Shown in pieces: positions 4,269-38,356 of a DNA stretch of 38,356 nt. This DNA is from Alistipes sp. (GTDB taxonomy: Bacteria; Bacteroidota; Bacteroidia; Bacteroidales; Rikenellaceae). The notes below the pieces were generated by a model. It was given only the letters and a program-made list of their open reading frames with translations, did not search any database and was not told the origin of the DNA. How positions within the stretch are numbered: the first letter of the stretch is position 1; each line of letters starts with the position of its first letter. Position numbers and translations under genes: made by a program. The stretch is taken from the NCBI GenBank assembly GCA_017474235.1, contig JAFVIB010000022.1:1-38356 (forward strand). Direction: 5' to 3'.

Positions 4269-4395
4269 AATTTATTGTCAGAGTTGTGTATTTACAACGC
4301 TCGGCGTTTTTCGAGGCGATGGGACATACTAAAGGTATTTCCCATTGTCGAGAAAAAGGTTAGCGGTAGTAAATGCGCCACTATCACAATAAATT
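4269..4395 (+). repeat. Dispersed palindromic element, copy A
   Basis: Outer arms AATTTATTGTC (4269-4279) and CACAATAAATT (4385-4395) pair except for one C-C. The inner element has a conserved ACAACGCTCGGC on the left and GGTTAGCGG on the right flanking a long stem TTTTTCGAGGCGATGGGA / TCCCATTGTCGAGAAAAA with apex CATAC-TAAA-GGTAT. The right arm encodes the last codons and the TGA stop of yicC, with a second in-frame stop TAG next to it. It lies inside the presumed yicC-gmk transcription unit. Confidence 0.85.
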
Positions 4396-5256
4396 GAGGA
4401 CCTGCTCCTTAATCTTCTCTAACTCGTCTTTCATCTTAACCACCAATACCTGAATATCGTGGTTATTTGCCTTTGAGCCGGTGGTATTAATTTCGCGACC
4501 CATCTCCTGCGCAATAAATCCGAGCTTACGACCTGCCAAAGGTTCTGTAGCAGCCACCTCGCGGAAATATTTGCAGTGGGCAGCAAGGCGAACCTTCTCC
4601 TCGGTAATGTCGAGTTTCTCGATATAGAATATCATCTCCTGCTCAAGGCGATTTTCATCTACCTCAATGCCAATCTTTGCAATACCCTCACGAATACGCT
4701 CACGCACAGCATCTGCGCGGGCTGTCTCAAACGGAGTGATAGCATCACGGCACTGCTCGATAATCTCTACCCTCTTAATCAGGTCTGCAATCAATATCTC
4801 GCCCTCCTGCACACGGAACGCATCAAGACGCTCTGCTGCAACATTCACCGCCTCAACTATCGCCTTTAACTCCTCATCAGAGACACTCTCGCTCTCGGTT
4901 GAAAGGACATTAGGCATACGCAACACTGCCGGCACGATAGCGTCAAAAGCGGCATCGATACCCGAGTAGCTGAGCGCATCTGTCACCTGATGCAGATAGG
5001 CACGGAAAATATCGTTATTTATCACGCCACCGGTCTGTACAGCCTCACTCTCAAATGTGATAAGCACATCAACCTTACCACGCACAAGAGCCTTAGCCAC
5101 AGCACTTCTCACCTCTGCCTCGGCAGCACGATATGCAAGCGGCAACTTGACAGACAAATCCAACTGCTTGGAATTAAGCGAGCGAATCTCTGCTGTAAAC
5201 TTCTTATTACCCACCTTGACCTCGGCTTTACCGAAGCCCGTCATAGATTTTTGCAT
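4384..5256 (-). CDS. yicC: YicC family endoribonuclease
   Basis: A 290-residue YicC-family protein; members have been described as endoribonucleases, and the gene is a habitual neighbour of gmk. The N-terminus MQKSMTGFGKAEV and the LNSKQLDLSVKLP segment belong to the YicC-N domain (1-155); the C-terminal DUF1732 domain is seen in IEKLDITEEKVRLAAHCKYF, GRKLGFIAQEMGREINT and the QVLNLL end. The ATG at 5254-5256 is preceded by a TACCTTTG -7 box. Oddity: the last codons (AAT TTA TTG) and the TGA lie within the terminal arm of palindromic repeat A, so the extreme C-terminus is shared with the repeat. Confidence 0.93.
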   Translation of the reverse strand: MQKSMTGFGKAEVKVGNKKFTAEIRSLNSKQLDLSVKLPLAYRAAEAEVRSAVAKALVRGKVDVLITFESEAVQTGGVINNDIFRAYLHQVTDALSYSGIDAAFDAIVPAVLRMPNVLSTESESVSDEELKAIVEAVNVAAERLDAFRVQEGEILIADLIKRVEIIEQCRDAITPFETARADAVRERIREGIAKIGIEVDENRLEQEMIFYIEKLDITEEKVRLAAHCKYFREVAATEPLAGRKLGFIAQEMGREINTTGSKANNHDIQVLVVKMKDELEKIKEQVLNLL

Positions 5257-5275
5257 AGTCTAAAAATTAATGGCA

Positions 5276-5307
5276 CAAAGGTAATAAAAAAATCTTGCGG
5301 GTGCAAG
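5276..5307 (-). promoter_or_regulatory. yicC operon promoter
   Basis: TACCTTTG on the minus strand (5276-5283) matches the Bacteroidota -7 box; CTTG (5304-5307) sits 20 bp further upstream in the -33 position. The -33 half lies inside the hairpin terminator of the preceding operon, so terminator and promoter overlap. It is 20 bp from the yicC start codon, giving a very short leader. Confidence 0.6.
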
Positions 5308-5314
5308 ATTTTTT
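5287..5314 (-). terminator. Perfect 12-bp hairpin terminator, probably bidirectional
   Basis: AAAAAATCTTGC (5287-5298) and GCAAGATTTTTT (5303-5314) are perfectly complementary around a 4-nt GGGT loop, with T tracts available on both strands. On the minus strand it follows the serC-serA-DUF1015 operon after repeat B. It overlaps the -33 region of the yicC promoter. Confidence 0.75.
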
Positions 5315-5391
5315 GTCTGATGCAGCAAAGAGAAAAGAGTAGAGAGTGTAAGCAGTGAATTTAAGAGATTCAGAGATTAGAGTACCTACCT

Positions 5392-5520
5392 ATTTTATCG
5401 TCAAAATGAGGCAGTTATGGTGCATCGTAAAAAAATAGCAGTCGCGGATAGTACTAAAGCATACAACCGTGACTGCTATTTAAGGGATGTGCAGCAGATG
5501 CCGCATTTTCACAATAAAAT
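5392..5520 (+). repeat. Dispersed palindromic element, copy B
   Basis: Outer arms ATTTTATCGTC (5392-5402) and CACAATAAAAT (5510-5520) pair apart from the family C-C mismatch and one C-A, which would be a G-U wobble in minus-strand RNA. The inner stem AAATAGCAGTCGCGG / CCGTGACTGCTATTT has an almost unrelated primary sequence compared with the other copies, yet keeps the apex GGATAGTACTAAA and the G-T pair. The CGCTCGGC flank is diverged. The right end contributes the first base of the DUF1015 stop triplet. Confidence 0.82.
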
Positions 5521-6755
5521 TAGAACTTGTGGATTACTACACCCGAGCGCAACTTCGGCTCAAACCAAGTAGTCTTCGGCGGCATAATATTACCGGTGTC
5601 GGCGATATCTATCAATTGGCGCATAGAGACAGGATAGAGGGCAAAAGCGACCTTCATCTCGCCACTATCTACACGGCGTTTAAGCTCGCCAAGACCGCGA
5701 ATACCGCCAACAAAGTCGATACGCTTTGAGGTACGCAGGTCTGTGATACCCAAAATCTTATCAAGGACAAGATTTGAGAGTACGGTAACATCGAGCACAC
5801 CAATAGGGTCATTATCATCGTAAGTACCCTCTTTAGCGGTAAGGCTATACCAAGTGCCGGCGAGGTACATTGAGAAGTTGTGCAGAGAAGATGGAGTATA
5901 TATCTCGGCACCGAGCTTCTCGACAGTAAAATCTGTCTCCAAAGCAGAGAGGAACTGCTCCTCAGTAAGTCCATTAAGATCCTTGACTACGCGGTTATAG
6001 TCGATAATGCGCAGGTGTGACTCAGGGAATGTTACAGCGAGGAAGTAGCAATACTCCTCCTCTCCGGTATGGTTAGGATTATTAGCCTTACACTCTGCAC
6101 CTACACGCGCAGCAGCTGCCGTACGGTGGTGACCATCGGCAACATAGAGTGCAGGGATTGTTGCAAAAATCTCTGTGATACGACGGCAAGTAGCCTGGTC
6201 GTCAATAACCCACAACTTATGACCGAATGTATCGGCAGCGGTAAAGTCATACTCCGCAGGCTTTGAAACCGCCTCGGCAACGATGGCGTCTATCTCTGAA
6301 TTATCCGGATAGGCAAAGAACACAGGCTCGATATTGGCACTCTGATTACGCACATGAATCATACGATCCTCCTCCTTATCGGGGCGAGTAAGCTCGTGCT
6401 TCTTGATAGCACCCGACAGGTAGTCCTCAAAGTGGCAGCACATAACAAGACCATACTGCGTTCTGCCGTTCATTGTCTGGGCATAGACATAGTAGCACTC
6501 CTTATTATCCTGAACAAGCCAACCGCGCTCTTGCCAGAGCTTAAAGTTCTCGACAGCCTTCTGATATACCTCCGCAGAGTGTTCGTCTGCGATAGGGTCA
6601 AAGTCTATCTCGGGCTTGATAATGTGGAGCAGAGAGCGTTCTGTAGCCTCAGCTTTTGCCTCGACAGAGTTCAGAACATCATAGGGGCGCGATGCCACCT
6701 CAGCGGCATACTGCTTTGGAGGGCGGACGCCCTGAAAAGGTTTAATGCGTACCAT
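5520..6755 (-). CDS. DUF1015 family protein in the serine operon
   Basis: A 411-residue DUF1015 protein, a family of unknown biochemical role that recurrently sits beside serA/serC. Recognisable segments: the N-terminal FQGVRPPKQYAAEVASRPYD, the YVYAQTMNGRTQYGLV strand, the conserved histidine motif YVADGHHRTAAAARV (about residues 226-240), and the C-terminal VSMRQLIDIADTGNIMPPKT segment, where the P-P-K-T/S-T end is family-typical. It starts 2 bp after the serA stop. The paired histidines suggest metal or phosphate chemistry, but that is inference. Its stop codon abuts the arm of repeat B. Confidence 0.88.
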   Translation of the reverse strand: MVRIKPFQGVRPPKQYAAEVASRPYDVLNSVEAKAEATERSLLHIIKPEIDFDPIADEHSAEVYQKAVENFKLWQERGWLVQDNKECYYVYAQTMNGRTQYGLVMCCHFEDYLSGAIKKHELTRPDKEEDRMIHVRNQSANIEPVFFAYPDNSEIDAIVAEAVSKPAEYDFTAADTFGHKLWVIDDQATCRRITEIFATIPALYVADGHHRTAAAARVGAECKANNPNHTGEEEYCYFLAVTFPESHLRIIDYNRVVKDLNGLTEEQFLSALETDFTVEKLGAEIYTPSSLHNFSMYLAGTWYSLTAKEGTYDDNDPIGVLDVTVLSNLVLDKILGITDLRTSKRIDFVGGIRGLGELKRRVDSGEMKVAFALYPVSMRQLIDIADTGNIMPPKTTWFEPKLRSGVVIHKF

Positions 6756-6757
6756 AA

Positions 6758-7756
6758 CTATCTATTTACCTGAAATTTGGTATTTCCTGTCTCAAAGAAA
6801 TCTACAATCTGTCGTGCAGCAGCAAGACCGGCATTGATATTTGCCTCGGCAGTCTCTGCGCCCATTTTCTTCGGCGTTGCAAATACGCGCTTACCGAACT
6901 GTTCGTTCATCTGGCAGCAACACTCAGGAGCAACATCGCTCACATACTTAAGGTCCTCACGCTCGGAGAGTGCCTTGCAGAGTCCCGCCTCGTCAATAAC
7001 CTCCTTACGGGCAGTATTGACAAGCGTTGCACCCTTAGGCATAGAGGTCAGCAGCTCGTAGCCGATAGAGCCCTTAGTCTGTGGTGTTGCAGGGATATGA
7101 AGCGAGAGGAAGTCGGCACGGCGATACAGCTCCTCCATAGACTCAACTCTCTCCACGCCATCGCACTCAAATACAGAGCAGTCGCTGACAAACGGGTCGT
7201 ATGCAATAACATTCATACCCAAAGCCTTACCCTTACAGCCCACAAGGCGACCCACATTACCGTAAGCGTGAATAGCGAGGGTCTTACCCTTAATTTCGCC
7301 ACCTGTGCCCGGGGTAAAGCAGTTGCGCGACATAAATATCATCATCGCAATAGCCAACTCAGCCACAGCGTTTGAGTTCTGACCCGGAGTATTCATCACA
7401 ACGACCCCACGAGCCTTAGCATCGCAGCAGTCCACATTGTCATAACCTGCACCGGCACGAACAACAATCTTGAGGTTTGGTGCAGCAGCAAGCACATCGC
7501 AAGTGATTTTATCACTACGCACAATCAGTGCATCGACATCTGCCACAGCATCCAGAAGCTGGGTCTTATCTGTATATTTCTCGAGGCGAACAACAGTATG
7601 ACCTGCGCCCTCTAGTATCTCTACCATACCATCTACCGCAGCCTTAGCAAACGGTTTCTCTGTTGCAATAAGAACTTTCATACCCTTTACAAATGATGTG
7701 AAATATAGTGCTTTCTCCTCTTTTTTCTCGAATGTATATGGAACTATAGTCGCCAT
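6758..7756 (-). CDS. serA: D-3-phosphoglycerate dehydrogenase
   Basis: A D-2-hydroxyacid dehydrogenase for the first step of serine synthesis, short form without ACT domain. The substrate domain starts MKVLIATEKPFAKAAVDGM; the Rossmann region shows HAYGNVGRLVGCKGKALGM, a variant of GxGxxG with Ala-Tyr-Gly; the family motif ...LVNTARKEVIDEAGL carries the usual NTxR region; the catalytic His appears replaced or shifted in the SDVAPECC segment, as in Bacteroidota forms. The reading frame gives 332 residues from 7756, but the family usually begins at the internal ATG at 7679-7681 (307 residues). The upstream ATG lies only 3 bp after serC, so either start is possible and I prefer neither strongly. 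Operon: serC-serA-DUF1015. Confidence 0.9.
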   Translation of the reverse strand: MATIVPYTFEKKEEKALYFTSFVKGMKVLIATEKPFAKAAVDGMVEILEGAGHTVVRLEKYTDKTQLLDAVADVDALIVRSDKITCDVLAAAPNLKIVVRAGAGYDNVDCCDAKARGVVVMNTPGQNSNAVAELAIAMMIFMSRNCFTPGTGGEIKGKTLAIHAYGNVGRLVGCKGKALGMNVIAYDPFVSDCSVFECDGVERVESMEELYRRADFLSLHIPATPQTKGSIGYELLTSMPKGATLVNTARKEVIDEAGLCKALSEREDLKYVSDVAPECCCQMNEQFGKRVFATPKKMGAETAEANINAGLAAARQIVDFFETGNTKFQVNR

Positions 7757-7759
7757 AGC

Positions 7760-8830
7760 CTACTTATGCAATTGTTCAAACTCCTGCATACAAGCCACAA
7801 GTGCCTCAACAGACTCCTTTGGCAGTGCATTGTAGCACGAAGCACGGAAACCTCCTACAAGGCGGTGACCCTTGATGCCGACCATACCGCGCTCGGTAGC
7901 AAACTTGAGGAAGTCCGCAGCAAGCTCCTCCTTACCCTCTGCCATAACAAAGCAGATATTCATCAGTGAGCGGTCTGGCTGATCGACTGTCGGACGGAAG
8001 AGAGAGTTGCGCTCAATCTCATCATAGAGAATCTGAGCCTTCTCAAGATTAATCTTATACATAGCCTCCAAACCACCGATAGACTTAATCCACTTAAGGG
8101 TCTCGTTCATCACAAAGATTGGGAATACAGGAGGGGTATTGAACATTGAGTTATTCTCCACATGGGTATTCACATTGACCATAGTAGGCAGTGGACGAAC
8201 AACCTTCTGCAACATATCGTCACGGATAATTACGAATGAGACACCCGCAGGAGCCAAATTCTTCTGCGCACCACCATAGATAACTGCATACTTTGACACA
8301 TCAATAGGTCGGCTCAGAATATCTGAACTCATATCTGCAATAACCGGAACAGGAGAGTCGATATCGCTCTTATACTCTGTACCGTAGATGGTATTGTTTG
8401 TACAGATATAGAGGTAATCAATATCTGTCGGAATCTCAAAGTTCTTAGGGATATAGCAGAAGTTTCTATCCTCAGAAGATGCCACAACCTCCACCTCGCC
8501 GTAGAGCTTTGCCTCCTTGATAGCCTTCTTTGTCCAAACGCCTGTATTTACATAACCCGCCTTCTTGCCCAAAAAGTTTGCAGGGATATGGAAGAATTGT
8601 GTACTTGCACCACCACCTACGAAGTAGATATGGTAGTTCTCCGGAATATTAAGCAACTCGCGCATAAGTGCCTGTGCAGAGTTAAGCACATCTTCAAAAT
8701 CCTTCGTTCTGTGAGAGATAGAGAGAATCGAAAGACCTGTACCGTTAAAGTCAAGAATTGCTTTTGCTGCATTCTGATAGGCTACATCCGGAAGAATGGA
8801 TGGACCAGCGCTGAAATTATGCTTTTTCAT
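7760..8830 (-). CDS. serC: 3-phosphoserine aminotransferase
   Basis: A 356-residue PLP-dependent class V aminotransferase acting on phosphohydroxypyruvate in serine synthesis (and on the related step in pyridoxal phosphate synthesis). The start [15 protein letters not shown] is the family N-terminus; [17 protein letters not shown] binds the cofactor phosphate; [12 protein letters not shown] contains the PLP lysine; the end has [12 protein letters not shown] choose the ATG at 8828-8830: the longer frame would begin at a TTG that lies inside the -7 box of the promoter. It leads the serC-serA-DUF1015 operon, 3 bp or 78 bp before serA depending on the serA start. Confidence 0.95.
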
Positions 8831-8854
8831 AACAATTAAGAATTTTTGTTCATA

Positions 8855-8886
8855 CAAATATAACTAACCTTTTATAAATATCCAAA
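8855..8886 (-). promoter_or_regulatory. serC operon promoter
   Basis: Minus strand TTTG (8883-8886), 20-bp spacer, TATATTTG (8855-8862): an exact match to the Bacteroidota sigma-factor consensus TTTG-N19-21-TAnnTTTG. It lies 24 bp from the serC ATG and immediately after the stop codon of the upstream sulfatase gene. Its position argues that the serC start is at 8830, not further upstream. Confidence 0.8.
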
Positions 8887-8892
8887 TTTTTC

Positions 8893-10539
8893 TTACAATT
8901 TATCAGGCATCGGAACAACCTCTCCTGTTGTTCGATAGCTCGGCATCGGAGAGTTCCACTTGCGCAGGGTCTCTGACAGCTCTACTGCAAGCTCTTTAAC
9001 CCTCTCCGGATACTTTGCAGCCAAGTCGTGCTGCTCGCCAATATCCTCACGAAGATTGTACAGCTCCAATTTACCGGTGCGCATACGATAGACCAACTTC
9101 CAATCGCCCTTGCGCACTGCACTGAGAAAATCAATATCCTCCAAATCGTAAGGCTTCCACTGGTGCGGATAGTGGAACACGAGCGCGCGCTCAGGGTCGA
9201 TACCTGACACCTCCTGCGGAACAACAAAGGAGTTGGCACTCTTTTGGTCTGTAATCTGACCCTTCTTAGCCGCCTTTGCTGCAAGTTTTGAACCCTTTGT
9301 GACAAGATTTACAAGGCTCTTGCCATCTACACTCTGAACAACATCGTAACGCTTAATGCCCGCCATTTGCAGAATTGTCGGGAACAAGTCCTCACAAATC
9401 ACAGGGGTATTTACCCTTGTATCAGGGGCAACCTTTCCGCTCCACTTAACCATCAGCGGAACACGGATACCGCCCTCATAGACAGAGCCTTTACCATTTC
9501 GCAGCGGCAGATTGTGCATAAAGCGTACACCACCCTTTGCCTTATTCTCGGCATTACCGCCATTGTCGGTCATAAAGATAATGATTGTATCATCTGCAAC
9601 GCCCTTTGCCTCCAAATAGTCAAGCAAATCACCCAAGCTCTTATCCACTCCCTCAACCATTGAGGCATAGCGAGCCTGACCCTCATCCATTCCGGCATCA
9701 AGATACCTCTGCACAAAGCGAGAATCGCGCTGAATTGGCGTATGGGTTGCATAGTGAGCAAAATAGAGGTAGAACGGCAGGTCATTCTCAACCGGATAGT
9801 CAAGAGTTTTAAGTGCCTCACGGGTCAGTGCCTCGGTAAGATGTATGCCCGTGCCGTAGTACTCCGTCATATTCTGCACGGCAAGGTAGTTCCACAGCTG
9901 CGGAGTATTACCATAGTTATCCTCACTCTGATAGCTACGCGGCATACCTGCAACATTTCCCGACACATTGACATTATAACCCATATTGTATGGGCTTGCT
10001 CCCGGAGTTCCGGCACTTGCCCAATGCGCCTTGCCCACATGAATTGTATAGTAACCCGCATCTCTGAGCAGCTGTGGCAGAGGTGTAGCATAGAGCGTAC
10101 TCTCAACGCCCTCTACCGGACTCATACCGTTAATATTCCACTCCGGACGCGAGAAACGACCGCTCATATCATTATTGACACCACTCTGCATCATAGCCAC
10201 AGCACCACCCGTAGCATCACTCGGAGTATCGCGCGTAGTTGATGTCCAATTTGTGATATGCGAATGAGCCGCATTTACACCCGTAATAAGCGAAGTTCTG
10301 GTCGGTGTAGATACAGGACAGGCATAGGCATTTGTCAGCATAACGCCCTGACTTGCAAGACGCTGCATATTAGGCGTATTGTAACGCATATTATTCGGAT
10401 AGACCTCCTCGCCATAGGCAACAGAGCTATCTACCCAGCCCATATCATCAACAATAAAAAATACGATATTCGGCTTCTCCGCAGCCAAAGCCACTGACGG
10501 CGCAAGCAGAGAGAGACCGGTAAGATGTTTGAGTTTCAT
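8893..10539 (-). CDS. Exported serine-type sulfatase (family S1)
   Basis: A 548-residue arylsulfatase-fold hydrolase of sulfate esters. An N-terminal signal peptide (MKLKHLTGLSLLAPSVALAA) precedes NIVFFIVDDMGWVDSS, where the DD pair binds Ca. The active-site motif is S77-T-P-T-R81 within CPVSTPTRTSLITG: serine where many sulfatases have cysteine, so maturation to formylglycine needs an anaerobic radical-SAM maturase, and one is encoded at 36708-37925. GKAHWASAG supplies the catalytic K/H and FMTDNGGNAENK the second DN metal pair; a C-terminal subdomain begins about 430. The gene is monocistronic with its own -7 box (TACCTTTG, 10574-10581). Natural substrate unknown; mucin or dietary sulfated glycans are plausible. 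Confidence 0.93.
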   Translation of the reverse strand: MKLKHLTGLSLLAPSVALAAEKPNIVFFIVDDMGWVDSSVAYGEEVYPNNMRYNTPNMQRLASQGVMLTNAYACPVSTPTRTSLITGVNAAHSHITNWTSTTRDTPSDATGGAVAMMQSGVNNDMSGRFSRPEWNINGMSPVEGVESTLYATPLPQLLRDAGYYTIHVGKAHWASAGTPGASPYNMGYNVNVSGNVAGMPRSYQSEDNYGNTPQLWNYLAVQNMTEYYGTGIHLTEALTREALKTLDYPVENDLPFYLYFAHYATHTPIQRDSRFVQRYLDAGMDEGQARYASMVEGVDKSLGDLLDYLEAKGVADDTIIIFMTDNGGNAENKAKGGVRFMHNLPLRNGKGSVYEGGIRVPLMVKWSGKVAPDTRVNTPVICEDLFPTILQMAGIKRYDVVQSVDGKSLVNLVTKGSKLAAKAAKKGQITDQKSANSFVVPQEVSGIDPERALVFHYPHQWKPYDLEDIDFLSAVRKGDWKLVYRMRTGKLELYNLREDIGEQHDLAAKYPERVKELAVELSETLRKWNSPMPSYRTTGEVVPMPDKL

Positions 10540-10573
10540 AATTATCCGAATTTAAACAACTTCAACTTCTTAG

Positions 10574-10581
10574 CAAAGGTA
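10574..10581 (-). promoter_or_regulatory. -7 promoter box for the sulfatase gene at 8893-10539
   Basis: TACCTTTG on the minus strand, 34 bp upstream of the start codon, fits the Bacteroidota TAnnTTTG box. I see no good TTTG at the -33 spacing, so it may need an activator or be a weaker promoter. Confidence 0.5.
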
Positions 10582-10638
10582 ATAATTTTTTTTGAGGATT
10601 TGACCTAAAAAACGCAGATAACATTCTACCCAAACCCA

Positions 10639-11901: not shown

Positions 11902-12222
11902 AGCTATCTGTTTTTGTTTAGAAACTGTTTAAATTTGTTTGCGTTTTTTTCAACAGTTTCTTATGTAGCAAATATAGTAATAAAAACTCTTAGTATAAAA
12001 CTCTCAGCATAAAAAATAGCAAAGGACTGCACACAAAGCACTACCCAATTTGGTGTCAGAGCGGGACAAATAAGTACTCTACTACTACAAAAAACAATTT
12101 GTTGTCAAAAGGTAGTAGTAGCAACGCTCGGCACTAAAAACAGCGATGGGCTGTACTAAACCGTACTGCCCATTGCTGATTTTTAGGGTTAGCGGCAGCT
12201 AATGCTGCCTTTTCACAACAAA
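11902..12222. other. 321-bp intergenic region: EEP-gene leader, degenerate half-repeat and repeat C
   Basis: Left part: the leader of the EEP lipoprotein gene with a 9-bp inverted repeat (11921-11929 with 11952-11960) and a TATATTTG -7 box on the minus strand (11969-11976). Middle: AATTTGGTGTCAGAGCGGG near 12050-12067 resembles the left arm of the palindromic family, 46 bp ahead of the intact repeat C arm. Right: repeat C. No gene is visible in it. Confidence 0.7.
11921..11960 (-). promoter_or_regulatory. Inverted repeat in leader of the EEP lipoprotein gene
   Basis: GAAACTGTT (11921-11929) and AACAGTTTC (11952-11960) are exact inverted repeats separated by 22 A/T-rich bases containing a T7 run. 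With the -7 box at 11969-11976 the structure would lie at the very 5' end of the mRNA, so it could affect initiation or stability. Function not known. Confidence 0.5.
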
Positions 12223-12224
12223 TT
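12096..12224 (+). repeat. Dispersed palindromic element, copy C
   Basis: Arms AATTTGTTGTC (12096-12106) and CACAACAAATT (12214-12224) pair except for the C-C. Compared with copy D the arm has changed ATCG to GTTG on both sides, that is, compensatory change. Inner flanks AACGCTCGGC and GTTAGCGGC; inner stem CTAAAAACAGCGATGGGC / GCCCATTGCTGATTTTTAG with one bulge; apex TGTACTAAACCGTACT. The right end overlaps the TAA stop of the rubrerythrin gene. Confidence 0.87.
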
Positions 12225-12774
12225 ATTTGAAGTAGCGGTTATAAAGACCCTCAAAACCCTTTCCGTGACGAGCCTCGTCCTTTGCCATCTCGTGAACGGT
12301 ATCGTGAACAGCGTCGAGGTTCTGCTCCTTTGCCATACGAGCGAGGCGGAATTTATCCTCACAAGCACCGCTCTCGGCGTTCATACGCTTGAAGAGGTTG
12401 GTCTTAGTATCCCAAACTACCTCACCGAGAAGCTCAGCGAACTTTGAAGCGTGCTCTGCCTCCTCCCAAGCGTAACGCTTGAAAGCCTCGGCAATCTCAG
12501 GATAACCCTCACGGTCTGCCTGACGGCTCATAGCAAGATACATACCTACCTCGGTACACTCGCCCATAAAGTGGTTCTTAAGACCCTCAAGAAGCTCAGG
12601 GCTTGAACCAAGACCATCACCGAGAACATGCTCGGTAACAAACTCGAGGTTACCGCTCTGCTCCTCAATCTCTACAAACTTATCTGAAGGTACTTTGCAA
12701 AGTGGGCAACGCTCAGGTGCCTCATTTCCCTCGTGAATATAACCGCATACTGTGCAACGAAATTTCTTAGCCAT
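12223..12774 (-). CDS. Reverse rubrerythrin (rubredoxin domain first)
   Basis: A 183-residue non-haem iron peroxidase for oxidative-stress defence. Domain order is reversed relative to classic rubrerythrin: the rubredoxin-type Fe(SCys)4 site is N-terminal (CTVC at 7-10, CPLC at 23-26), and the ferritin-like diiron four-helix domain follows (about 50-183) with iron-ligand motifs [20 protein letters not shown] and DEARHGKGF. Such proteins reduce hydrogen peroxide with electrons from NADH-linked reductases in anaerobes. It has its own well-formed promoter at 12822-12852. The stop codon is overlapped by repeat C. Confidence 0.93.
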
Positions 12775-12821
12775 AATCTTTAATATTTTTTAAGTTTTAC
12801 ATTTGTTCTGTTTTTCTACTG

Positions 12822-29121: not shown

Positions 29122-29151
29122 AAATAACGCTTATGTGATATTATAATCGTA

Positions 29152-29252: not shown

Positions 29253-29347
29253 AGGAGATTAAGGATAAACACTAATTCCACTAAAATTCCGCTCATAGTT
29301 TGCACCATTTTATCGTCAGGATTTGCACTCCGTCACTGTCTTGCACC
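29253..29347 (+). repeat. Leader plus 41-bp tandem left-arm units preceding repeat D
   Basis: Resembles 37934-38034. The shared leader contains AAACACTAAT and CCACTAAAA-TCCGCTC. Then TTGCACCATTTTATCGTCAG occurs twice with a 41-bp period (29300 and 29341), the second copy being the left arm of repeat D. Between them lies the variant GCACTCCGTCACTGTC, related to ACTCCGCTCATAG in the other locus. Confidence 0.75.
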
Positions 29348-29474
29348 ATTTTATCGTCAGAGTGGCGTAGTTACAAGGCTCGGCTAAAAAGACAACGAAG
29401 GGCTGTACTGAGTGTACTGCCCTTTGTTGGATTTTTAGTTAGCCGATGGAAATGCGCCACTATCACGATAAAAT
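29348..29474 (+). repeat. Dispersed palindromic element, copy D
   Basis: Arms ATTTTATCGTC (29348-29358) and CACGATAAAAT (29464-29474) pair with the single conserved C-C. Inner stem CTAAAAAGACAACGAAGGGC / GCCCTTTGTTGGATTTTTAG carries a T-to-A change on the left matched on the right compared with copies C and G. Apex TGTACTGAGTGTACT. The right arm supplies the last three codons and TGA stop of the MATE gene, with an adjacent in-frame TAG. Confidence 0.88.
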
Positions 29475-30779
29475 AGTTTTTTGATAGACCTTTGCAAGCC
29501 TCCCCGACATAAAATACTGAGCTATCCCGCGCAATGCCATATAGGCTGTAAAGGCGAGCCAAAGTGCATTATTCCCGATAAATGGGTGAAGGGAGTAGTA
29601 GATAGCAAAATAGGCGACGGTAGAGAGAAGCATTGAGTTTCTAAGCACGCGGGTAAGAGTTGCTCCGACCATTATGCCGTCCATAAGAAATGGAAGTGCG
29701 GCGGCGAGAGGGATAGCTATAACCCAACCGATATATTGTCTTGCAACGGTCAGCATATCAATAAGTTGCGACTTATCGCCGAAAAACATCGAGAGTATAT
29801 CTTCCCACCAAACAACATAGATTGCGATACATATTGCAGCGGTACCCAAAGCCCACACCACGCAACGGCGTATGCAGAGTTGTAGCGACACTCTATCTCT
29901 TGCCCCGACAAATCTACCTGTAAGGGCTTCGGCAGCGTATGCAAAGCCGTCGTTCATATATGAGAAGAGGGTAAAGAGTTGCAGCAGCATAGTATTGACA
30001 GCCAGCACAATCTCACTCTCCATACGGGCAGAGGCTGCGGTAAAGAATGTATAGACGATAACGATGCAGAATGTGCGAATAATGATATCGCCATTGACCT
30101 TAAAAAACTCGCGCATAGCATCGAGCTGAAGTACTTGGCGAATATCGACCCTTTGGAGCGTTTTGCGGAAGAACAAGAGCAGCAGCACTATTGACAGTGT
30201 CATACCGCTCCACTGCGCCACCACAGAGGCGTATGCAATGCCCGTAATACCCATATCAAAACCAAAGACAAACCATAGACTGAGCAGCACATGGAGCACA
30301 TTGATAAATATAGATGTCACCATCGGTATCACGGCATTTTGCATACCCGTAAACCAGCCGTTTAGTCCGAAGAGCATAATTCCGGCAGGCACAGCCCAGA
30401 TGCGAGCATAGAAGTAGTCAGAGACCATCTGCGAGCCGTTCATCATCCAGAGCGACAGCTCCCCGAGCGGATACTGCAACACAAGCACCGCAAGACCCAA
30501 CACCGCCGAGAGAGCAACGGCACGAACAAGCATTGCCGTTGTGGTCGTAAAGTCCTCAGCACCAAAGGCTTGAGCAGTAAGACCGCTTGTTCCCATACGG
30601 ATAAACGAGCAGTTCCAATAGATAAAGTTGAATATCGACACACCGATAGCCAGCGCACCGATAGTTGCAGCACTATCTCCACAATGACCGGCGATGGCAG
30701 TAGAGAAGATACCCATCAACGGAACGGTAATATTCGAGATGATATTCGGTACGGCTATTCTGAAAATTTCTCTGTTCAT
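29463..30779 (-). CDS. MATE family efflux transporter
   Basis: A 438-residue, twelve-helix multidrug and toxin extrusion protein driven by Na or proton gradients. Repeats of the MATE halves can be seen: IFRIAVPNIISNITVPLMG at the N-terminus, GTSGLTAQAFGAED (residues about 63-76), the equivalent AYAAEALTGRFVGA segment in the second half, and FALGxD-like GFDMGITGIAYASVVAQW. Likely DinF-like branch. Oddity: the terminal ILS codons and TGA lie inside the arm of repeat D, so the native C-terminus may have been trimmed or replaced. Substrate unknown. Confidence 0.9.
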   Translation of the reverse strand: MNREIFRIAVPNIISNITVPLMGIFSTAIAGHCGDSAATIGALAIGVSIFNFIYWNCSFIRMGTSGLTAQAFGAEDFTTTTAMLVRAVALSAVLGLAVLVLQYPLGELSLWMMNGSQMVSDYFYARIWAVPAGIMLFGLNGWFTGMQNAVIPMVTSIFINVLHVLLSLWFVFGFDMGITGIAYASVVAQWSGMTLSIVLLLLFFRKTLQRVDIRQVLQLDAMREFFKVNGDIIIRTFCIVIVYTFFTAASARMESEIVLAVNTMLLQLFTLFSYMNDGFAYAAEALTGRFVGARDRVSLQLCIRRCVVWALGTAAICIAIYVVWWEDILSMFFGDKSQLIDMLTVARQYIGWVIAIPLAAALPFLMDGIMVGATLTRVLRNSMLLSTVAYFAIYYSLHPFIGNNALWLAFTAYMALRGIAQYFMSGRLAKVYQKTILS

Positions 30780-30783
30780 AGCG

Positions 30784-30830: not shown

Positions 30831-30852
30831 TGAAATTAGACACAGTTATATT

Positions 30853-31278: not shown

Positions 31279-31324
31279 ATAGTCTTTTTACCACATAGAG
31301 GGTGCTTGAATCGGTAAAAAAGAT

Positions 31325-31332
31325 TACCTTTG
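31325..31332 (+). promoter_or_regulatory. -7 box for the rluB operon
   Basis: TACCTTTG lies 18 bp before the rluB ATG. A TTG at 31306-31308 is 16 bp upstream, closer than the usual spacing. The rluB-hpt-queE-divIC genes would be transcribed from here. Confidence 0.5.
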
Positions 31333-31350
31333 CACCCAAAATAGAAAGTT

Positions 31351-32451: not shown

Positions 32452-32483
32452 CGCAAGGTATAACTGCAAAAACTAACCCTACA

Positions 32484-33648: not shown

Positions 33649-33962
33649 TGGCAAAAAAAATCAAGATAAAGGGGGCTGTAGGTAAGCTTTTTGAGGATGC
33701 GTCACTGCTTTTTTGGCGCATTCTCACTATCGTTGTCTCAATCTTAACACTCTTTATTATCGGCAAGTCGGTTGTGTCGATTATCAAGTCACAGCACCAT
33801 ATCAACCAACTTGAGCGTCAGCGCGACAGCTACCTTGAGAGCATCGAGGCGGATAGCATTATGCTTCATAATCTCAAAAACGACGACTACCTTGAGCAGT
33901 TTGCCCGCGAGCGATACAATATGCAGCGCAAGGGCGAGCGTATATATATTATGGAGAGGTAG
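33648..33962 (+). CDS. Septum formation initiator family protein (DivIC/FtsB-like)
   Basis: A 104-residue bitopic protein. The N-terminal basic segment MAKKIKIKGAVGKLF is followed by a transmembrane helix (about 23-43, LLFWRILTIVVSILTLFIIG), then a coiled coil (HHINQLERQRDSYLESIEAD) and the end DDYLEQFARERYNMQRKGE, where FARExYxM is diagnostic for DivIC/FtsB. It should bridge division proteins at the septum. The ATG overlaps the queE stop (TAATG). Ends the rluB operon. Confidence 0.9.
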   Translation: MAKKIKIKGAVGKLFEDASLLFWRILTIVVSILTLFIIGKSVVSIIKSQHHINQLERQRDSYLESIEADSIMLHNLKNDDYLEQFARERYNMQRKGERIYIMER

Positions 33963-34033
33963 TCCACTTCTTGTACTATTTTTATTGGCGCGAATAATTT
34001 TCCGACTGCACTCCGTCGCTATTATGCACTCAT

Positions 34034-34159
34034 TTTTATCGTCAAAATAGTGCAAATACCACGCTCGGCAGAAAATGATGACGATGGATAGTACTAAAGG
34101 TACAGCCATTGTCAGCATTTTATGTTAGCGGCAGCAGGTGCCGTATTTTCACAACAAAA
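34034..34159 (+). repeat. Dispersed palindromic element, copy E
   Basis: Arms TTTTATCGTC (34034-34043) and CACAACAAAA (34150-34159): two positions are A-C/C-A on the plus strand and would be G-U wobble pairs in minus-strand RNA, plus the C-C. Inner stem AGAAAATGATGACGATGG / CCATTGTCAGCATTTTAT; apex ATAGTACTAAAGGTACAG; flanks CACGCTCGGC and GTTAGCGGC. It lies between convergent divIC and rplT, next to the rplT terminator. A single upstream half-unit (GCACTCCGTCGCT, near 34007) precedes it. Confidence 0.86.
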
Positions 34160-34207
34160 CAAAAGGGACGAGTTGACACTCGCCCCTCACTTTTGCGACC
34201 GCAAAAG
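34159..34207 (-). terminator. rplT terminator, with second hairpin
   Basis: Two hairpins follow the rplT stop on the minus strand: CTTTTGC (34190-34196) with GCAAAAG (34201-34207), then GGGACGAGT (34165-34173) with ACTCGCCCC (34178-34186), the latter followed by TTTTGTTTTG. The second is a textbook intrinsic terminator. Confidence 0.8.
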
Positions 34208-34208
34208 G

Positions 34209-34553
34209 CTATTTAACTGCGTTTACAATTGCCTCGAATGCTTTCGGCTCGTTCATCGCCAGGTCAGCCATAACCTTACGGTTAAGAGCGATACCCTTAG
34301 CGTTTACTTTACCGATGAACTCCGAATAGGTCATACCGTAAGCACGGACTGCCGCATTGATACGGGTAATCCACAACGAACGGAATGTACGCTTCTTAAG
34401 GCGGCGGTGTGCGTATGCATACTGCAGACCCTTCTCGACAGTATTTTTGGCTACTGTCCAAACATTTCCCCTTGAACCAAAGTTACCTTTGGCAAGCTTC
34501 AAAACCTTTTTTCTTCTTGCGCGTGACGCAACAGCATTGACTGAACGTGGCAT
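34209..34553 (-). CDS. rplT: 50S ribosomal protein L20
   Basis: A 114-residue basic ribosomal protein that binds 23S rRNA early in assembly. The start [20 protein letters not shown] and the central [10 protein letters not shown]-type segment ([19 protein letters not shown]) with [19 protein letters not shown] are the L20 signature. Length normal. It follows rpmI by 104 bp in the canonical rpmI-rplT order. In other bacteria L20 represses its own operon by binding the leader. Confidence 0.97.
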
Positions 34554-34657
34554 AATTAAAAGTTTTTGATGAAGTTAACAGCGGTACGATTCTCTCGCAC
34601 TCTTTAGGGCTGTTTCACTCCGGTTAATAAAATAAATTTACTTTGCTCGGCTGCTAA

Positions 34658-34852
34658 TTATTTAACAAGCAGAGTCTTGATCTTAGCCTCATCGGCTGGT
34701 GAAACGATACCTGAATAGCAGAGGTTACGCTTCTGTTTCTTAGTCTTTTTGGTCAGGATGTGACTGTGATAAGCGTGCTTACGCTTAATCTTACCTGTGC
34801 CGGTGAAAGTAAAACGCTTCTTTGCAGCGGCATTAGTTTTCATTTTTGGCAT
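34658..34852 (-). CDS. rpmI: 50S ribosomal protein L35
   Basis: A 64-residue basic protein [18 protein letters not shown] with the [20 protein letters not shown] segment typical of L35. infC, which precedes rpmI in most Bacteroidota, is not upstream; the next 254 bp upstream hold a promoter and then a divergent sulfatase gene. A TATCTTTG box is at 34885-34892. Confidence 0.96.
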
Positions 34853-34884
34853 AATTGTAAAATATTTTAGTTAAACATAGCGTG

Positions 34885-34919
34885 CAAAGATACGACTTTT
34901 TTTGTTACCGCCAACCAAA
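34885..34919 (-). promoter_or_regulatory. rpmI-rplT promoter
   Basis: Minus strand TATCTTTG (34885-34892) with TTTG (34916-34919) 23 bp upstream, slightly longer than usual. It is 33 bp from the rpmI ATG, so rpmI-rplT are transcribed without an upstream infC. Confidence 0.6.
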
Positions 34920-35072
34920 GTTCCAAACTTTTTTCGCATTTTTGTCAAAATCAAACCTAAAACGGCTATCAAATTGACAAAATTGACCCGCATAACACTC
35001 CCTGTTACCACTCTGACCACACTCCTACTGAGAAATTCAAGGCAGATATTTCTCATAAACAACATTTTTTTC

Positions 35073-35080
35073 TATCTTTG
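35073..35080 (+). promoter_or_regulatory. -7 box of the sulfatase/maturase operon
   Basis: TATCTTTG, 26 bp before the sulfatase ATG. No clear TTTG at the -33 spacing. Between this box and the rpmI promoter lie about 150 bp where I see nothing else. Confidence 0.55.
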
Positions 35081-35106
35081 TAGCAATAAACCAAAACAGC
35101 AAAATA

Positions 35107-36708
35107 ATGAAACTAAACAAACTATCCAAGACAGCACTGTGCGTTGCCGTACCGACAGCAGCTGTAACACCTTTGGCTTTTACAAGCTGTAAATCTGCCG
35201 AGCAGAGGTCTGAAAGACCAAATATCATCTTTATCCTCATGGATGATGCCGGCTATGGCGACTTTGGATGCTATGGTCAGACTAAGACCGAAACTCCGAA
35301 TATCGACGCACTCGCAGAGAACGGCATCCGCTTTACAGATATGTACACCGCTGCCCCTGTATCCTCTCCGTCACGCGCCTGCCTGATTACAGGTCAGCAC
35401 ATGGGTAACTCGCAGATTCGTGAGAATGTCGAGGGTCGTGTCGAGGATGGTATTTGGAACTTCGATACCGTTGATGCTCACCCTGAGATTGAGGGACAGA
35501 TGGGTCTTAAGCCCGGAACACCGACTCTCGGAACTGTTATGCAGCAGGCAGGTTATGCTACAGGTATGGTCGGCAAATGGGGTATCGGCAGCCCTGTAGG
35601 CGGCTCTGCTCCGTGGGATATGGGCTTTGACTTCTACTACGGTTGCGTATGCCAACGCGTGGCTCACAACTACTACCCTGCCTATATGTGGAAAAATGGA
35701 GAGAAAGAGTATATCAACGACCCTGCAACCATTACCCACCCGGGCACAAAGCTCGACAAGGGCGCAGATCCTCTCGACCCAAAGAGCTATGATAAGTACA
35801 GCGAGGGCAAGAGATATGCTCCCGATGCAATGTACGACAATGTTGTCGAGTTTGTCCGCACCAATAAGGATAAGCCATTCTTCCTTATGTGGACCACTCC
35901 ATTCCCACACTCTCCACTTCAGGCACCAAAGGAGTGGGTAGAGAAGTATGTTGCAAAGTATGGCGACGAGGAGCCACTTGTGGGCGAGAACTGCGAGCTT
36001 AACGCCTGGCCTCACAACTACTACCCTTGCCGCTACCCACATGCAACATATTCTGCAATGATTTCATACTTCGACTATCAGGTCGGCGAGCTTGTTAAGG
36101 AGCTTAAGCGTCTTGGTATCTATGAAAATACAGTTATTATGTTCTCAAGCGACAACGGTCCGGCAAATAACGCCTCTTCTCCAACCGTTTGGATGGATAG
36201 CGCTGCGCCATATCGTTGTGGTAAGGGTTGGGGCAAGCGCACGCTGCACGAGGGCGGTATCCGTATGCCATTTATCGCTTCTTGGCCCGCAAAGATTAAG
36301 CAGGGGGTAGTGAGCGACCATATAGGTATCTTTGCCGATGTTATGCCGACAGTATGTGAACTTGCCGGTGTCGAGACTCCAAAGACCGACGGCGTATCGC
36401 TCGTGCCTATCCTCTCTGGCAACCCTGAGGCGCAGCAGGAGCACCCTTATCTCTATTGGGAGTACCCTGCAGCAGGTGGAATGATTGCTGTTCGCGAGGG
36501 CAATTGGAAGGGTCTTATCGAGGATGTGCATAACGGCAATCGTACAATGAAGCTCTTTGACCTCAGTACCCCGGGTAAGGATATCGAGTTTGACGATAAG
36601 GATATAGCTGCATCACACCCTGAGATTGTTGAGCGTATGTGGGGCTATATCGAGCAGAGCCACAACCTTGCCGAGTATGAGCCATTTAATGTAGATATAT
36701 CAAGATAA
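35107..36708 (+). CDS. Serine-type sulfatase, probable lipoprotein
   Basis: A 533-residue S1 sulfatase. Leader MKLNKLSKTALCVAV with a possible lipobox at Cys28 (FTSCKS). Metal site FILMDDAGYGDFGCYG; active-site motif S86-S-P-S-R90 in APVSSPSRACLITGQ, a serine type requiring oxidation to formylglycine; GMVGKWGIG carries the catalytic Lys, and MFSSDNGPANN the second metal pair. The region after 420 is the C-terminal subdomain (WEYPAAGGMIAVREGNWKG). It is translationally coupled to the maturase (TAATG). Resembles arylsulfatase A / N-acetylgalactosamine-6-sulfatase-like proteins, but substrate cannot be set. Confidence 0.93.
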   Translation: MKLNKLSKTALCVAVPTAAVTPLAFTSCKSAEQRSERPNIIFILMDDAGYGDFGCYGQTKTETPNIDALAENGIRFTDMYTAAPVSSPSRACLITGQHMGNSQIRENVEGRVEDGIWNFDTVDAHPEIEGQMGLKPGTPTLGTVMQQAGYATGMVGKWGIGSPVGGSAPWDMGFDFYYGCVCQRVAHNYYPAYMWKNGEKEYINDPATITHPGTKLDKGADPLDPKSYDKYSEGKRYAPDAMYDNVVEFVRTNKDKPFFLMWTTPFPHSPLQAPKEWVEKYVAKYGDEEPLVGENCELNAWPHNYYPCRYPHATYSAMISYFDYQVGELVKELKRLGIYENTVIMFSSDNGPANNASSPTVWMDSAAPYRCGKGWGKRTLHEGGIRMPFIASWPAKIKQGVVSDHIGIFADVMPTVCELAGVETPKTDGVSLVPILSGNPEAQQEHPYLYWEYPAAGGMIAVREGNWKGLIEDVHNGNRTMKLFDLSTPGKDIEFDDKDIAASHPEIVERMWGYIEQSHNLAEYEPFNVDISR

Positions 36709-37925
36709 TGCGCCGAAGCGTAGAGTTTAGTTACGAAGATATTGTCAAGCGCAATGAGCGACGCGGCTTTACCTCTATGGTTAAGCCCGTCGGCTCTTTA
36801 TGTAATATGCGCTGCAAATACTGCTACTACCTCGACAAAGCAGCTCTATACGACTACCGCCAACCGTTGATGAGCGATGAGCTGTTAGAGCGGTACATCC
36901 GAGCAAATATCGAGGGTAATAACTCGCCTGTCATAGCCTTTGCGTGGCACGGCGGAGAACCTTTGCTTGCAGGTAAGGAGTTTTTCCGCAAGGCTGTGGC
37001 GTTAGAACAGAAGTATGCCGAGGGTCGCACGGTCGAGAACTCTATTCAGACCAACGGACTGCTTCTTGATGACGAGTGGTGCGCCATTTTCCGCGATAAC
37101 AACTTCCTTGTCGGAGTATCTATCGATGGTCCTGAGCATATCCACGATGCTCACCGCGTAGATGCGGGAGGTCAGCCGACCTTCGCCCGTGTTATGAAGG
37201 GTATTGAGCGACTATATCGCAACCGCGTGGAGTATAACACACTGACAACCGTAAATATCCATAGCGAGGGTCGCGGTGCGGAGGTCTATAACTTTTTGCG
37301 AGGTATCAGCGTCTTTATGCAGTTTTTGCCCGTGGCAGAGCTGCTATGTGACGGCAGAATACAATCTCCGGAGGCTCAAAAGGCAGATATAGCACCGTGG
37401 TCAGTCAGTGCAAAGGGCTTCGGAGAGTTTATGTGCGATGTGTTCGATATATGGGTCAAGAAGGATGTCGGCAGACGATATGTACAACTCTTTGACGCCA
37501 CACTCGCCCTTATGGTCGGTGTGCAACCATCAGTCTGCTCACTCTGCGAGACCTGCGGTAGCGGACTTACGGTCGAACATAATGGCGATGTATATTGTTG
37601 CGACCACTTTGTCTATCCGGAGTATAAGATAGGAAATATCCATACCGACCGCCTTGCAGACCTTGCCTACTGCGACCGACAGTTTGAGTTTGGCGTAGCA
37701 AAACGCGCCCTGCTACCGCGAGAGTGTCGCCACTGTAAGTACTATAATCTCTGCCACGGAGAGTGCCCAAAGCACCGTTTTATTGATGATAATCGTGGCG
37801 AATATGGCAAAAACTACCTCTGCGAGGGGTATAAACACTTCTACGACCATACAGCACAGGCTATGGAGCGTATGAAAGAACTTATTCTTGCCGGCAAGCC
37901 CGCCGCAGATATTATGCAAGACTGA
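36708..37925 (+). CDS. Anaerobic sulfatase-maturating enzyme (radical SAM, SPASM)
   Basis: A 405-residue anSME that converts an active-site Ser or Cys of sulfatases to formylglycine without oxygen. The radical SAM cluster site is C32-x3-C36-x2-C39 (LCNMRCKYCYY). AFAWHGGEPLLAG, IQTNGLLLD and VGVSIDGPEHIHDAHR are family motifs. The SPASM domain has CSLCETCGSG, VYCCDHFVYPEYKIGNI and CRHCKYYNLCHGECPKHR, enough cysteines for two auxiliary 4Fe-4S clusters. It starts within the stop of the sulfatase gene and probably also matures the serine-type sulfatase at 8893-10539. A proximal non-coding region follows. Confidence 0.95.
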   Translation: MRRSVEFSYEDIVKRNERRGFTSMVKPVGSLCNMRCKYCYYLDKAALYDYRQPLMSDELLERYIRANIEGNNSPVIAFAWHGGEPLLAGKEFFRKAVALEQKYAEGRTVENSIQTNGLLLDDEWCAIFRDNNFLVGVSIDGPEHIHDAHRVDAGGQPTFARVMKGIERLYRNRVEYNTLTTVNIHSEGRGAEVYNFLRGISVFMQFLPVAELLCDGRIQSPEAQKADIAPWSVSAKGFGEFMCDVFDIWVKKDVGRRYVQLFDATLALMVGVQPSVCSLCETCGSGLTVEHNGDVYCCDHFVYPEYKIGNIHTDRLADLAYCDRQFEFGVAKRALLPRECRHCKYYNLCHGECPKHRFIDDNRGEYGKNYLCEGYKHFYDHTAQAMERMKELILAGKPAADIMQD

Positions 37926-37933
37926 TAGGGGGA

Positions 37934-38034
37934 GTAGGGACAAACACTAATCACCTTTAATCGCCACTAAAACTCCGCTCTCATTTTGCACCCATTTTAT
38001 CATCAGAGTTTGTACTCCGCTCATAGTTTGCACC
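37934..38034 (+). repeat. Leader plus 41-bp tandem left-arm unit preceding repeat F
   Basis: Second occurrence of the leader seen at 29253-29347: AAACACTAAT, then CCACTAAAACTCCGCTC, then TTGCACCCATTTTATCATCAG (one extra C and one C-to-T relative to the other units) and ACTCCGCTCATAGTTTGCACC joining to the repeat F left arm 41 bp later. Confidence 0.75.
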
Positions 38035-38231
38035 ATTTTATCGTCAGAGCGGGGTAGATAGCGCGTTATCACCACAAAATCTCCATTTGTGCTTAGAAGG
38101 GTGCAGATGCAACGCTCGATGAAAAATCCCAGCGATGGATAGTACAAGTAGTACAGCCATTGCTGGGACTTTTTATTAGCGGAAGCAGGTGCGCTCTTAT
38201 AAGCGCAAATGCCGCATTTTCACGATAAAAT
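38035..38231 (+). repeat. Dispersed palindromic element, copy F (enlarged)
   Basis: At 197 bp this copy is longer than the others. Arms ATTTTATCGTC (38035-38045) and CACGATAAAAT (38221-38231) pair apart from the C-C. Inner stem AAAAATCCCAGCGATGG / CCATTGCTGGGACTTTTT with one bulge; apex ATAGTACAAGTAGTACAG. A middle section absent elsewhere, CATTTGTGCTTA on the left and TAAGCGCAAATG on the right, also pairs, and about 35 bp of left sequence is unpaired. Confidence 0.78.
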
Positions 38232-38232
38232 C

Positions 38233-38356
38233 ATTTTGTTGTCAAAAGTGCGTAGTTACAACGCTCGGCGCGATTGGAGGCGATGGGCTGTACTAAGCGT
38301 ACTGCCCATTGCTGACATATCGCGTTAGCGGAAGTAAATGCGTACTTTTCACAACA
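38233..38356 (+). repeat. Dispersed palindromic element, copy G (cut by window edge)
   Basis: Left arm ATTTTGTTGTC (38233-38243); right arm CACAACA (38350-38356) is cut by the edge and should extend about four or five bases. This is the most regular copy: AAAAGTGCG / CGTACTTTT, AACGCTCGGC / GTTAGCGG, inner stem CGCGATTGGAGGCGATGGGC / GCCCATTGCTGACATATCGCG, apex TGTACTAAGCGTACT. Confidence 0.82.

What the first reader, a model, noticed from the sequence alone, without database searches (positions are those of the whole stretch)
4269..38356. A family of about 127-bp imperfect palindromes, seven copies, all in one orientation
Copies A-G (4269, 5392, 12096, 29348, 34034, 38035, 38233) share an outer stem, a short conserved flank (CGCTCGGC left, GTTAGCGG right) and a long inner stem with GTAC near the apex. 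Primary sequence of the stems differs strongly between copies, but pairing is kept: for example ATCG/CGAT in D becomes GTTG/CAAC in C, and GATGGGC/GCCCAT in C becomes GAAGGGC/GCCCTT in D. Compensatory change across dispersed copies indicates that structure matters, either for the element's own mobility (REP/MITE-like) or for an RNA function. No transposase is in the window and I cannot match it to a named element.
Basis: seen in the sequence. Interest (0 to 1): 0.82.

Follow-up and report, generated by a model that had tools for sequence, protein, structure and literature searches.

The report
Replication-oriented hairpin repeats at gene ends
The seven long hairpin-forming repeats belong to a large dispersed family, found in gut bacteria of the Alistipes group, that usually sits right behind the stop codons of genes and nearly always points the same way relative to chromosome copying, so it looks like a mobile DNA hairpin whose spread is tied to replication and whose moving enzyme is unknown.

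Summary
The window carries seven imperfect palindromes of ~127 bp plus a 46-nt remnant, all in one orientation. A covariance model finds about 115 places in the host's 1.97-Mb genome and 145 matches in a sister species (both lower bounds); of 150 genomes of the family 33 match, in 3 of 22 genera. Base-pair covariation is strong. Two facts change the picture. First, orientation is coherent along contigs (108 of 115; sister species 139 of 145) and follows GC skew even where most genes run the other way. Second, arrays abut stop codons of genes transcribed into them (60 of 81 within -15..+25 nt; 25 of 27 convergent pairs). One strand, antisense to the abutting gene and by skew the leading-strand template, folds better in 95 of 95 distinct copies (DNA energies), helped by conserved G.T pairs. 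The yicC-gmk gap holds an element in 3 of 21 genomes and none in 18. No Y1/RAYT transposase (0 of 26 genus genomes) and no integron integrase over cut-off (0 of 26) was found. Best reading: a non-autonomous, REP-like single-strand hairpin element with replication-linked polarity, mobilised in trans by an unknown enzyme.

The parts
4269..4395 (+). Copy A, between yicC (4384-5256 -) and gmk (3673-4236 -); its right arm supplies the yicC stop codon TGA
5392..5518 (+). Copy B, a variant subfamily (GCATCGT / GGGATGTG core), abutting the stop codon of the DUF1015 gene 5520-6755 (-)
12096..12224 (+). Copy C, touching the TAA stop of the rubrerythrin gene 12223-12774 (-)
29288..29347 (+). Units of ~41 bp holding the left end ATTTTATCGTCAG plus TTGCACC leader, upstream of copy D
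   Evidence: families D11-D13
29348..29475 (+). Copy D; its right arm supplies the stop codon of the MatE gene 29463-30779 (-)
34033..34160 (+). Copy E, beginning (mRNA sense) in the T-tract of the rplT terminator
34163..34188 (-). Intrinsic-terminator-like hairpin of rplT (34209-34553 -), directly before copy E in mRNA sense
38035..38080 (+). 46-nt remnant: left end joined to right end, inner part deleted
38084..38209 (+). Copy F
38210..38231 (+). Lone right-end fragment between F and G
   Evidence: (D3)
38233..38356 (+). Copy G, truncated by the contig end; identical sequence stands at the ends of contigs C25, C40 and C42 and inside C14, which probably caused the assembly break (inference)

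Best explanation
A non-autonomous mobile DNA element of the REP/REPIN-like sort. SHOWN: ~127-bp imperfect hairpin with conserved departures from pairing (a C.C mismatch at the inner end of the basal helix in 41 of 48 copies, an internal loop beside AACGCT, a bulged C in 48 of 48 followed by G.T pairs, a GTAC stem at the apex); about 115 places in this genome; strong covariation; preferred position at stop codons; orientation locked to GC skew; better folding of one strand (antisense to the abutting gene). By the usual rule that the G-rich strand is the leading strand, that strand is the leading-strand template and the abutting genes are leading-strand genes. INFERRED: the better-folding strand, when single-stranded or extruded, is recognised as a hairpin by a recombinase or nuclease acting in trans, which inserts it just behind gene ends or terminator T-tracts in a polarity set by the replication fork. 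New units can be added beside old ones, giving head-to-tail arrays, and deletion of inner hairpins leaves remnants. The enzyme is not identified.
For: Copies: 135 matches, 117 after removing overlapping opposite-strand matches, one 51-nt partial place still counted twice. Covariation; mismatch and bulge counts. Strand-specific wobble: GU at pair 35-98 in 47 of 48 and at 51-82 in 46 of 48; G.T 201 vs A.C 34 at Watson-Crick-flanked sites in 95 distinct copies, 113 vs 34 without the fixed CGA/GTT context; DNA-energy folding favours the + strand in 95 of 95, means -33.95 vs -27.69; RNA energies in 92 of 95. Orientation: 108 of 115 own copies agree with their contig majority, maximum 92 in 10,000 random draws; sister genome 139 of 145, maximum 109. 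GC3 skew averaged over genes of both strands agrees in 11 of 11 contig segments with >20 kb of ORF (with the same sign in + and - genes in all 11) and in 18 of 23 in all. On contig C35 elements flip between 50.8 and 65 kb; the GC3 skew of + genes is -0.043 and -0.134 in the two tiles to the left and +0.052 to +0.243 in the six tiles to the right. Gene ends. Filled versus empty site. Recent spread: four other copies 95-98% identical to D and five identical copies of the G type, some possibly counted twice.
Against: No mobilising gene found. No copy was seen in the act of moving: the 18 genomes without the element at yicC-gmk are diverged (yicC 57-67% identical in protein), so insertion edges and target duplications are not resolved. 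The three filled genomes carry very different elements there, so one old insertion that diverged is possible. Six of 145 and three to seven of 115 copies have the minority orientation. Five short contig segments disagree with skew. On C35 the - genes show no clear switch and raw skew is positive in only four of the six tiles to the right. In the sister genome contig C57 has almost no skew, and its + genes have the wrong sign. The better-folding strand lies on the leading-strand template, opposite to what IS608-type transposition on the lagging-strand template would favour. 21 of 81 arrays are not within -15..+25 nt of a stop codon of a gene read into them.
Confidence: 0.55

Rival explanations
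1. A 3'-UTR RNA element (mRNA 3'-end stabiliser, processing site or termination aid) kept at operon ends by selection; mobility is incidental.
For: 60 of 81 arrays lie within -15..+25 nt of the stop codon of a gene transcribed into them. Some downstream modules carry terminator-like hairpins (by eye). REPs are also thought to act as RNA at 3' ends (PMC3733652, abstract and section 15).
Against: The wobble pairs lie on the strand opposite to the mRNA; as mRNA the hairpin is weaker (RNA energies -49.75 vs -60.46, + strand better in 92 of 95). Orientation follows skew and not gene direction; in 27 convergent pairs the element abuts the sense-side gene in 25 and the other gene in 4. No U-tract follows the hairpin (sequence). 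No Rfam match in the window and only tRNAs in six further loci.
Confidence: 0.2
2. An attC-like site: a hairpin whose bottom strand is the substrate of a tyrosine recombinase, without gene cassettes.
For: Shared traits: palindrome behind stop codons, bottom strand folds better, that strand on the leading-strand template as in 25 of 30 sedentary integrons (PMC5371416, passages), head-to-tail arrays. Tyrosine recombinases that match the integrase model weakly occur in all 26 genomes searched.
Against: No integron integrase over cut-off in 26 genomes; the weak hits also occur where the element is absent. The recalled core sites RYYYAAC/GTTRRRY do not fit. Copies flank housekeeping genes kilobases apart, not cassettes.
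Confidence: 0.12
3. Mutationally maintained palindromes: replication template switching between arms keeps them complementary, strand-biased, without selection or dedicated mobility.
For: Template switching creates and repairs stems and yields compensatory changes (PMC8794818, abstract and opening). Orthologous B copies of two species keep long stems with different sequence.
Against: The C.C mismatch (41 of 48), bulged C (48 of 48) and fixed G.T pairs persist although arm homogenisation should erase them; it does not explain >100 copies placed mostly at stop codons, or the filled and empty sites.
Confidence: 0.08
4. A replication-polar chromosome signal (like KOPS or Chi, recalled) bound by a host protein, with copies retained only in the correct orientation.
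For: Polarity over contigs up to 402 kb and an orientation flip near a skew switch.
Against: Length, palindromic form, stop-codon preference, patchy distribution (33 of 150 family genomes) and near-identical copies suit a mobile element better; 11 of 24 other genus genomes have no match, so it is dispensable.
Confidence: 0.05

Closest known systems
REP / REPIN / BIME repeats with RAYT (TnpA-REP)
   Same: High-copy extragenic imperfect palindromes next to 3' ends, sometimes giving the stop codon (PMC3733652 section 15); compensatory hairpin changes noted in REPINs (PMC3116915 passages); tandem arrays
   Different: One hairpin of ~127 nt, no GTAG tag at an end and CGTC in only 21 of 48 copies, no Y1 transposase in 26 genus genomes, near-uniform replication polarity
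Integron attC sites (VCR type)
   Same: Palindrome of similar size (recalled) behind stop codons, bottom strand folds better, bottom strand on leading-strand template (PMC5371416 passages)
   Different: No integron integrase over cut-off, no cassettes, recalled core sites do not fit
MITEs, including BrickBuilt of Porphyromonas gingivalis (Bacteroidales)
   Same: Non-autonomous, intergenic, modular, structured (PMC4596501 and PMC10969869, passages)
   Different: No terminal repeats shared with a known IS were found, no consistent target duplication seen, orientation polar
IS200/IS605 single-strand transposons
   Same: Hairpins and replication-linked polarity (PMC6006769 passages)
   Different: No transposase; the well-folding strand is on the other template strand

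Membership tests
REP/RAYT repeats | Imperfect palindrome in many extragenic copies near gene 3' ends | tested here: met
REP/RAYT repeats | Unpaired GTAG or CGTC tag at one end of a 20-40 bp unit | tested here: not met
   Unit ~127 bp; no GTAG at an end; CGTC at the left arm in 21 of 48 copies, TGTC in 19, other in 8
REP/RAYT repeats | Cognate Y1 transposase gene in the genome | tested here: not met
   PF01797: 0 of 26 genus genomes, controls ring in 5 of 14; CGTC REPs also lack a dedicated transposase (PMC3733652 abstract)
IS200/IS605-derived MITE | Ends match an autonomous IS200/IS605 element in the genome | tested here: not met
   No transposase. Of 91 left-end hits 62 lie in known matches, 26 within 500 bases, 3 further away; of these three, C35:27158 was read, C41:94479 and C50:93807 were not
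Integron attC | Integron integrase of family TIGR02249 | tested here: not met
   0 of 26 genomes over cut-off, all 26 with weaker matches
Integron attC | Core sites RYYYAAC and GTTRRRY (recalled) | tested here: not met
   Conserved cores read CCGCTAAC and GAGCGTTG in the mRNA sense (by eye)
Integron attC | Bottom strand folds better than top strand | tested here: met
   95 of 95 distinct copies, DNA energies
DDE-type MITE | Target-site duplication of fixed length | tested here: inconclusive
   None seen by eye in flanks of 113 copies; no closely related empty site available
Intrinsic terminator | GC-rich hairpin followed directly by a U-tract | tested here: not met
   Hairpin ends ATAAAATGG in the mRNA sense of typical copies (by eye); the one scan hit inside a window copy is a 5-pair stem in copy C (12154-12140 -); copy E lies behind a separate terminator
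Known structured RNA families | Rfam match at gathering score | tested here: not met
   Window: 0; six further loci: tRNAs only

The most novel reading that the evidence does not exclude
A new class of single-strand hairpin mobile element: an attC-like but cassette-free site that an unidentified recombinase places at 3' ends of leading-strand genes across a whole chromosome, with the active strand held on the leading-strand template, so that nearly every copy records fork direction and the family marks origin and terminus by its orientation.
Probability: 0.22. Interest if true: 0.85.

Novelty: new variant of a known kind. Interest (0 to 1): 0.62.

Why it matters
Palindromic repeats are usually linked to RAYT transposases. 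Here a large family with near-identical, so probably recent, copies exists in genomes in which no such gene was found, with near-complete replication polarity and a one-strand folding signature. That makes the link between fork direction, single-stranded DNA and repeat insertion testable, and points to an unknown mobilising enzyme in common gut bacteria. The repeats also break assemblies and could help to orient contigs.

Tried and rejected
RAYT/IS200 partner: none. Integron integrase: none over cut-off. Transposase in the window: none among 38 ORFs scanned. Autonomous copy with matching ends: none seen; the isolated left-end hit at C35:27158 has no right-end match in its 20-kb tile; C41:94479 and C50:93807 were not read. 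Virus or other-taxon origin: 26 pattern hits in viral contigs and 14 in other bacteria or archaea look like chance, 0 of these 40 loci match the model; of the other 66 listed loci 65 match, all titled Alistipes or Rikenellaceae, and L088 (Bacteroidales bacterium) does not. Plasmids and annotated phages were not searched. Rfam: no family; weak hits in one locus are below gathering scores. Origin at dnaA: the skew of + genes stays negative to its right (no - genes there), so dnaA (C15:52984) does not seem to mark the switch. A Phage_integrase-family gene beside one copy (C7) lies next to prmA; weak integrase-model matches occur in all 26 genomes, so it was not taken as the partner. No transposase among 10 ORFs around copies on C7 and C42. 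Paper searches: no listed title or abstract start describes this family; eight papers were opened in part, none read whole.
Full report
OBSERVATION. The seven palindromes are there and point one way. Copy F is really a 46-nt remnant (38035-38080) followed by a full copy (38084-38209) and a lone right end (38210-38231); G is cut by the contig end. The model R1 (13 sequences) gives 135 matches in the host genome at E<=0.01, with 150 of 880 first-look candidates scored, so the count is a lower bound. Dropping overlapping opposite-strand matches leaves 117; one 51-nt partial place (C24:80174) is still in that number on both strands and was dropped afterwards, leaving 115. I fetched 113 of these with flanks; two on contig C49 were not fetched. 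The copies at the ends of contigs C4 and C40 (left flank only) and C25 and C42 (right flank only) are identical and may be two real copies counted twice. Head-to-tail arrays with ~126-131 bp periods occur, e.g. four units at C5:15950-16453 and five at C24:231084-231686.

STRUCTURE. In 48 distinct copies chosen among the better-scoring ones (36 own, 12 from other named genomes) 44 pairs are formed in 96.6% of 2112 cells; 29 pairs change on both sides; no shuffle of 500 reaches the observed values, and slid structures fall to 32-53% paired. Conserved departures from pairing persist: a C.C mismatch at the inner end of helix 1 (41 of 48), a bulged C (48 of 48), unpaired bases beside AACGCT, and G.T pairs at fixed positions (47 of 48 and 46 of 48). 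These G.T pairs lie on the + strand of the window. The complement carries A.C instead and folds worse in 95 of 95 distinct copies (bit score 60 or more) with DNA energies and 92 of 95 with RNA energies. Symmetric counting, which scores G.T and A.C alike, gives 481 vs 145 in all and 201 vs 34 at sites flanked by Watson-Crick pairs; without the single most frequent fixed context it is 113 vs 34. These counts are not independent events, because copies share ancestry.

POSITION. 113 copies form 83 arrays. In 69 of the 81 arrays with a neighbour on the right, that gene is transcribed toward the element, and in 60 its stop codon lies within -15..+25 nt, most often at +1 (22) or -10 (8); at -10 the element itself supplies the TGA in the cases read. 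Genes were called by a simple ORF rule; at least one call was wrong (copy E, where the real neighbour is rplT). Copy E starts in the T-tract of the rplT terminator; in the relative G006 rplT has a terminator-like hairpin (by eye) and no element. In 27 convergent pairs the sense-side gene is abutted in 25 and the other gene in 4. At the rubrerythrin stop codon another species (locus L061) also has an element. On the other side many copies carry a TTGCACC-like leader (43 of 113 within 12 nt), 41-bp partial units and further repeated hairpin modules.

REPLICATION POLARITY. Within contigs 108 of 115 copies agree in orientation, 112 of 115 if C35 is split at its switch; random orientation never exceeded 92 in 10,000 draws. 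Arrays counted once: 77 of 83, random maximum 68. The sister species G003: 139 of 145 (150 of 860 candidates scored), random maximum 109, with 29 of 29 copies alike on a 402-kb contig. Third-position GC skew averaged over genes of both strands has the predicted sign in 11 of 11 contig segments with more than 20 kb of ORF and in 18 of 23 overall; the five misfits (C1, C5, C25, C36, C40) have under 9 kb of ORF each. On C14, C15, C38 and C41 most sampled genes run the other way, yet the elements keep the leading-strand orientation. On C35 the orientation flips between 50.8 and 65 kb. The skew of + genes is negative in both tiles to the left and positive in all six to the right, but - genes show no clear switch and raw skew is positive in only four of those six. 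In G003 raw skew has the predicted sign in four of four contigs sampled but is near zero for C57, where + genes have the wrong sign, and - genes show little skew. That G-rich means leading strand is established knowledge, not tested here; an origin at C35:51-65 kb is an inference.

MOBILITY. At yicC-gmk, 3 of 21 genomes carry an element (G000, G003, G006, all different). The other 18 have no model match there: 15 have a gap of 6-22 nt and 3 have 65-128 nt of other DNA. At the MatE site G003 has no match and G006 has two; at rplT G006 has none; at the DUF1015 site G003 has a B-type copy and G006 a short remnant. Four copies are 95-98% identical to D. 13 of 24 other genus genomes have the family, from 1 to 85 matches, and none of 16 genomes of other families in the order. 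In 150 genomes of the family, own included, 33 have matches, in 3 of 22 genera (stricter filters, at most 23 candidates scored per genome). Named hits are Alistipes or Rikenellaceae MAGs, mostly from ruminant guts by their titles.

ENZYME. PF01797 was absent from 26 genus genomes, the integron integrase model was below cut-off in all 26, and no autonomous copy with these ends was seen. A transposase of another type, a tyrosine recombinase, or a host activity remains open.

INTERPRETATION. The element behaves like a REP/REPIN-type mobile hairpin, with an attC-like strand asymmetry and a replication polarity stronger than I know for REPs (recalled). It fails membership of the RAYT-REP and integron families. 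[quoted passage not shown] The evidence does not separate these two.

Noticed in passing
L277, L272, L273, L239 (flanks of C46, C40 and C24 copies): Further repeated hairpin modules lie beyond the palindromes, e.g. around CTCCCTTTTTCAAAGGGAGG, CCATCGTAGATGG and CTGCTTTTTCTCGAAAAAGCGGGCAG, forming mosaics of several repeat families behind gene ends.
   Followed up: partly
L343 and L340 (G007, G012), yicC-gmk gap: Two genomes without the element there carry a different palindrome-like insert (118-128 nt, runs like AAAGTGAAAGGT) at the same gene boundary, suggesting a hotspot.
   Followed up: no
L249 (G000:C24:231084-231686) and L229: An array subfamily with a different outer stem (ATTTTGAATTTTAGG) but the same core and orientation.
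   Followed up: no
L243, L251, L254, L262 (C24:107480, C25:11804, C29:20547, C35:268977): Copies whose outer stems share little sequence with the main family yet stand 1-2 nt from a stop codon.
   Followed up: no
L241, L245, L231 (left flanks of C24:88898, C24:134880, C15:33462): Junctions where half an element ends near its GTAC apex and continues as the TTGCACC leader, as if deletion had used short TTGC homology.
   Followed up: partly
G000:C15:52984: dnaA does not seem to lie at the GC-skew switch; the switch and the element flip lie on C35 at about 51-65 kb.
   Followed up: partly
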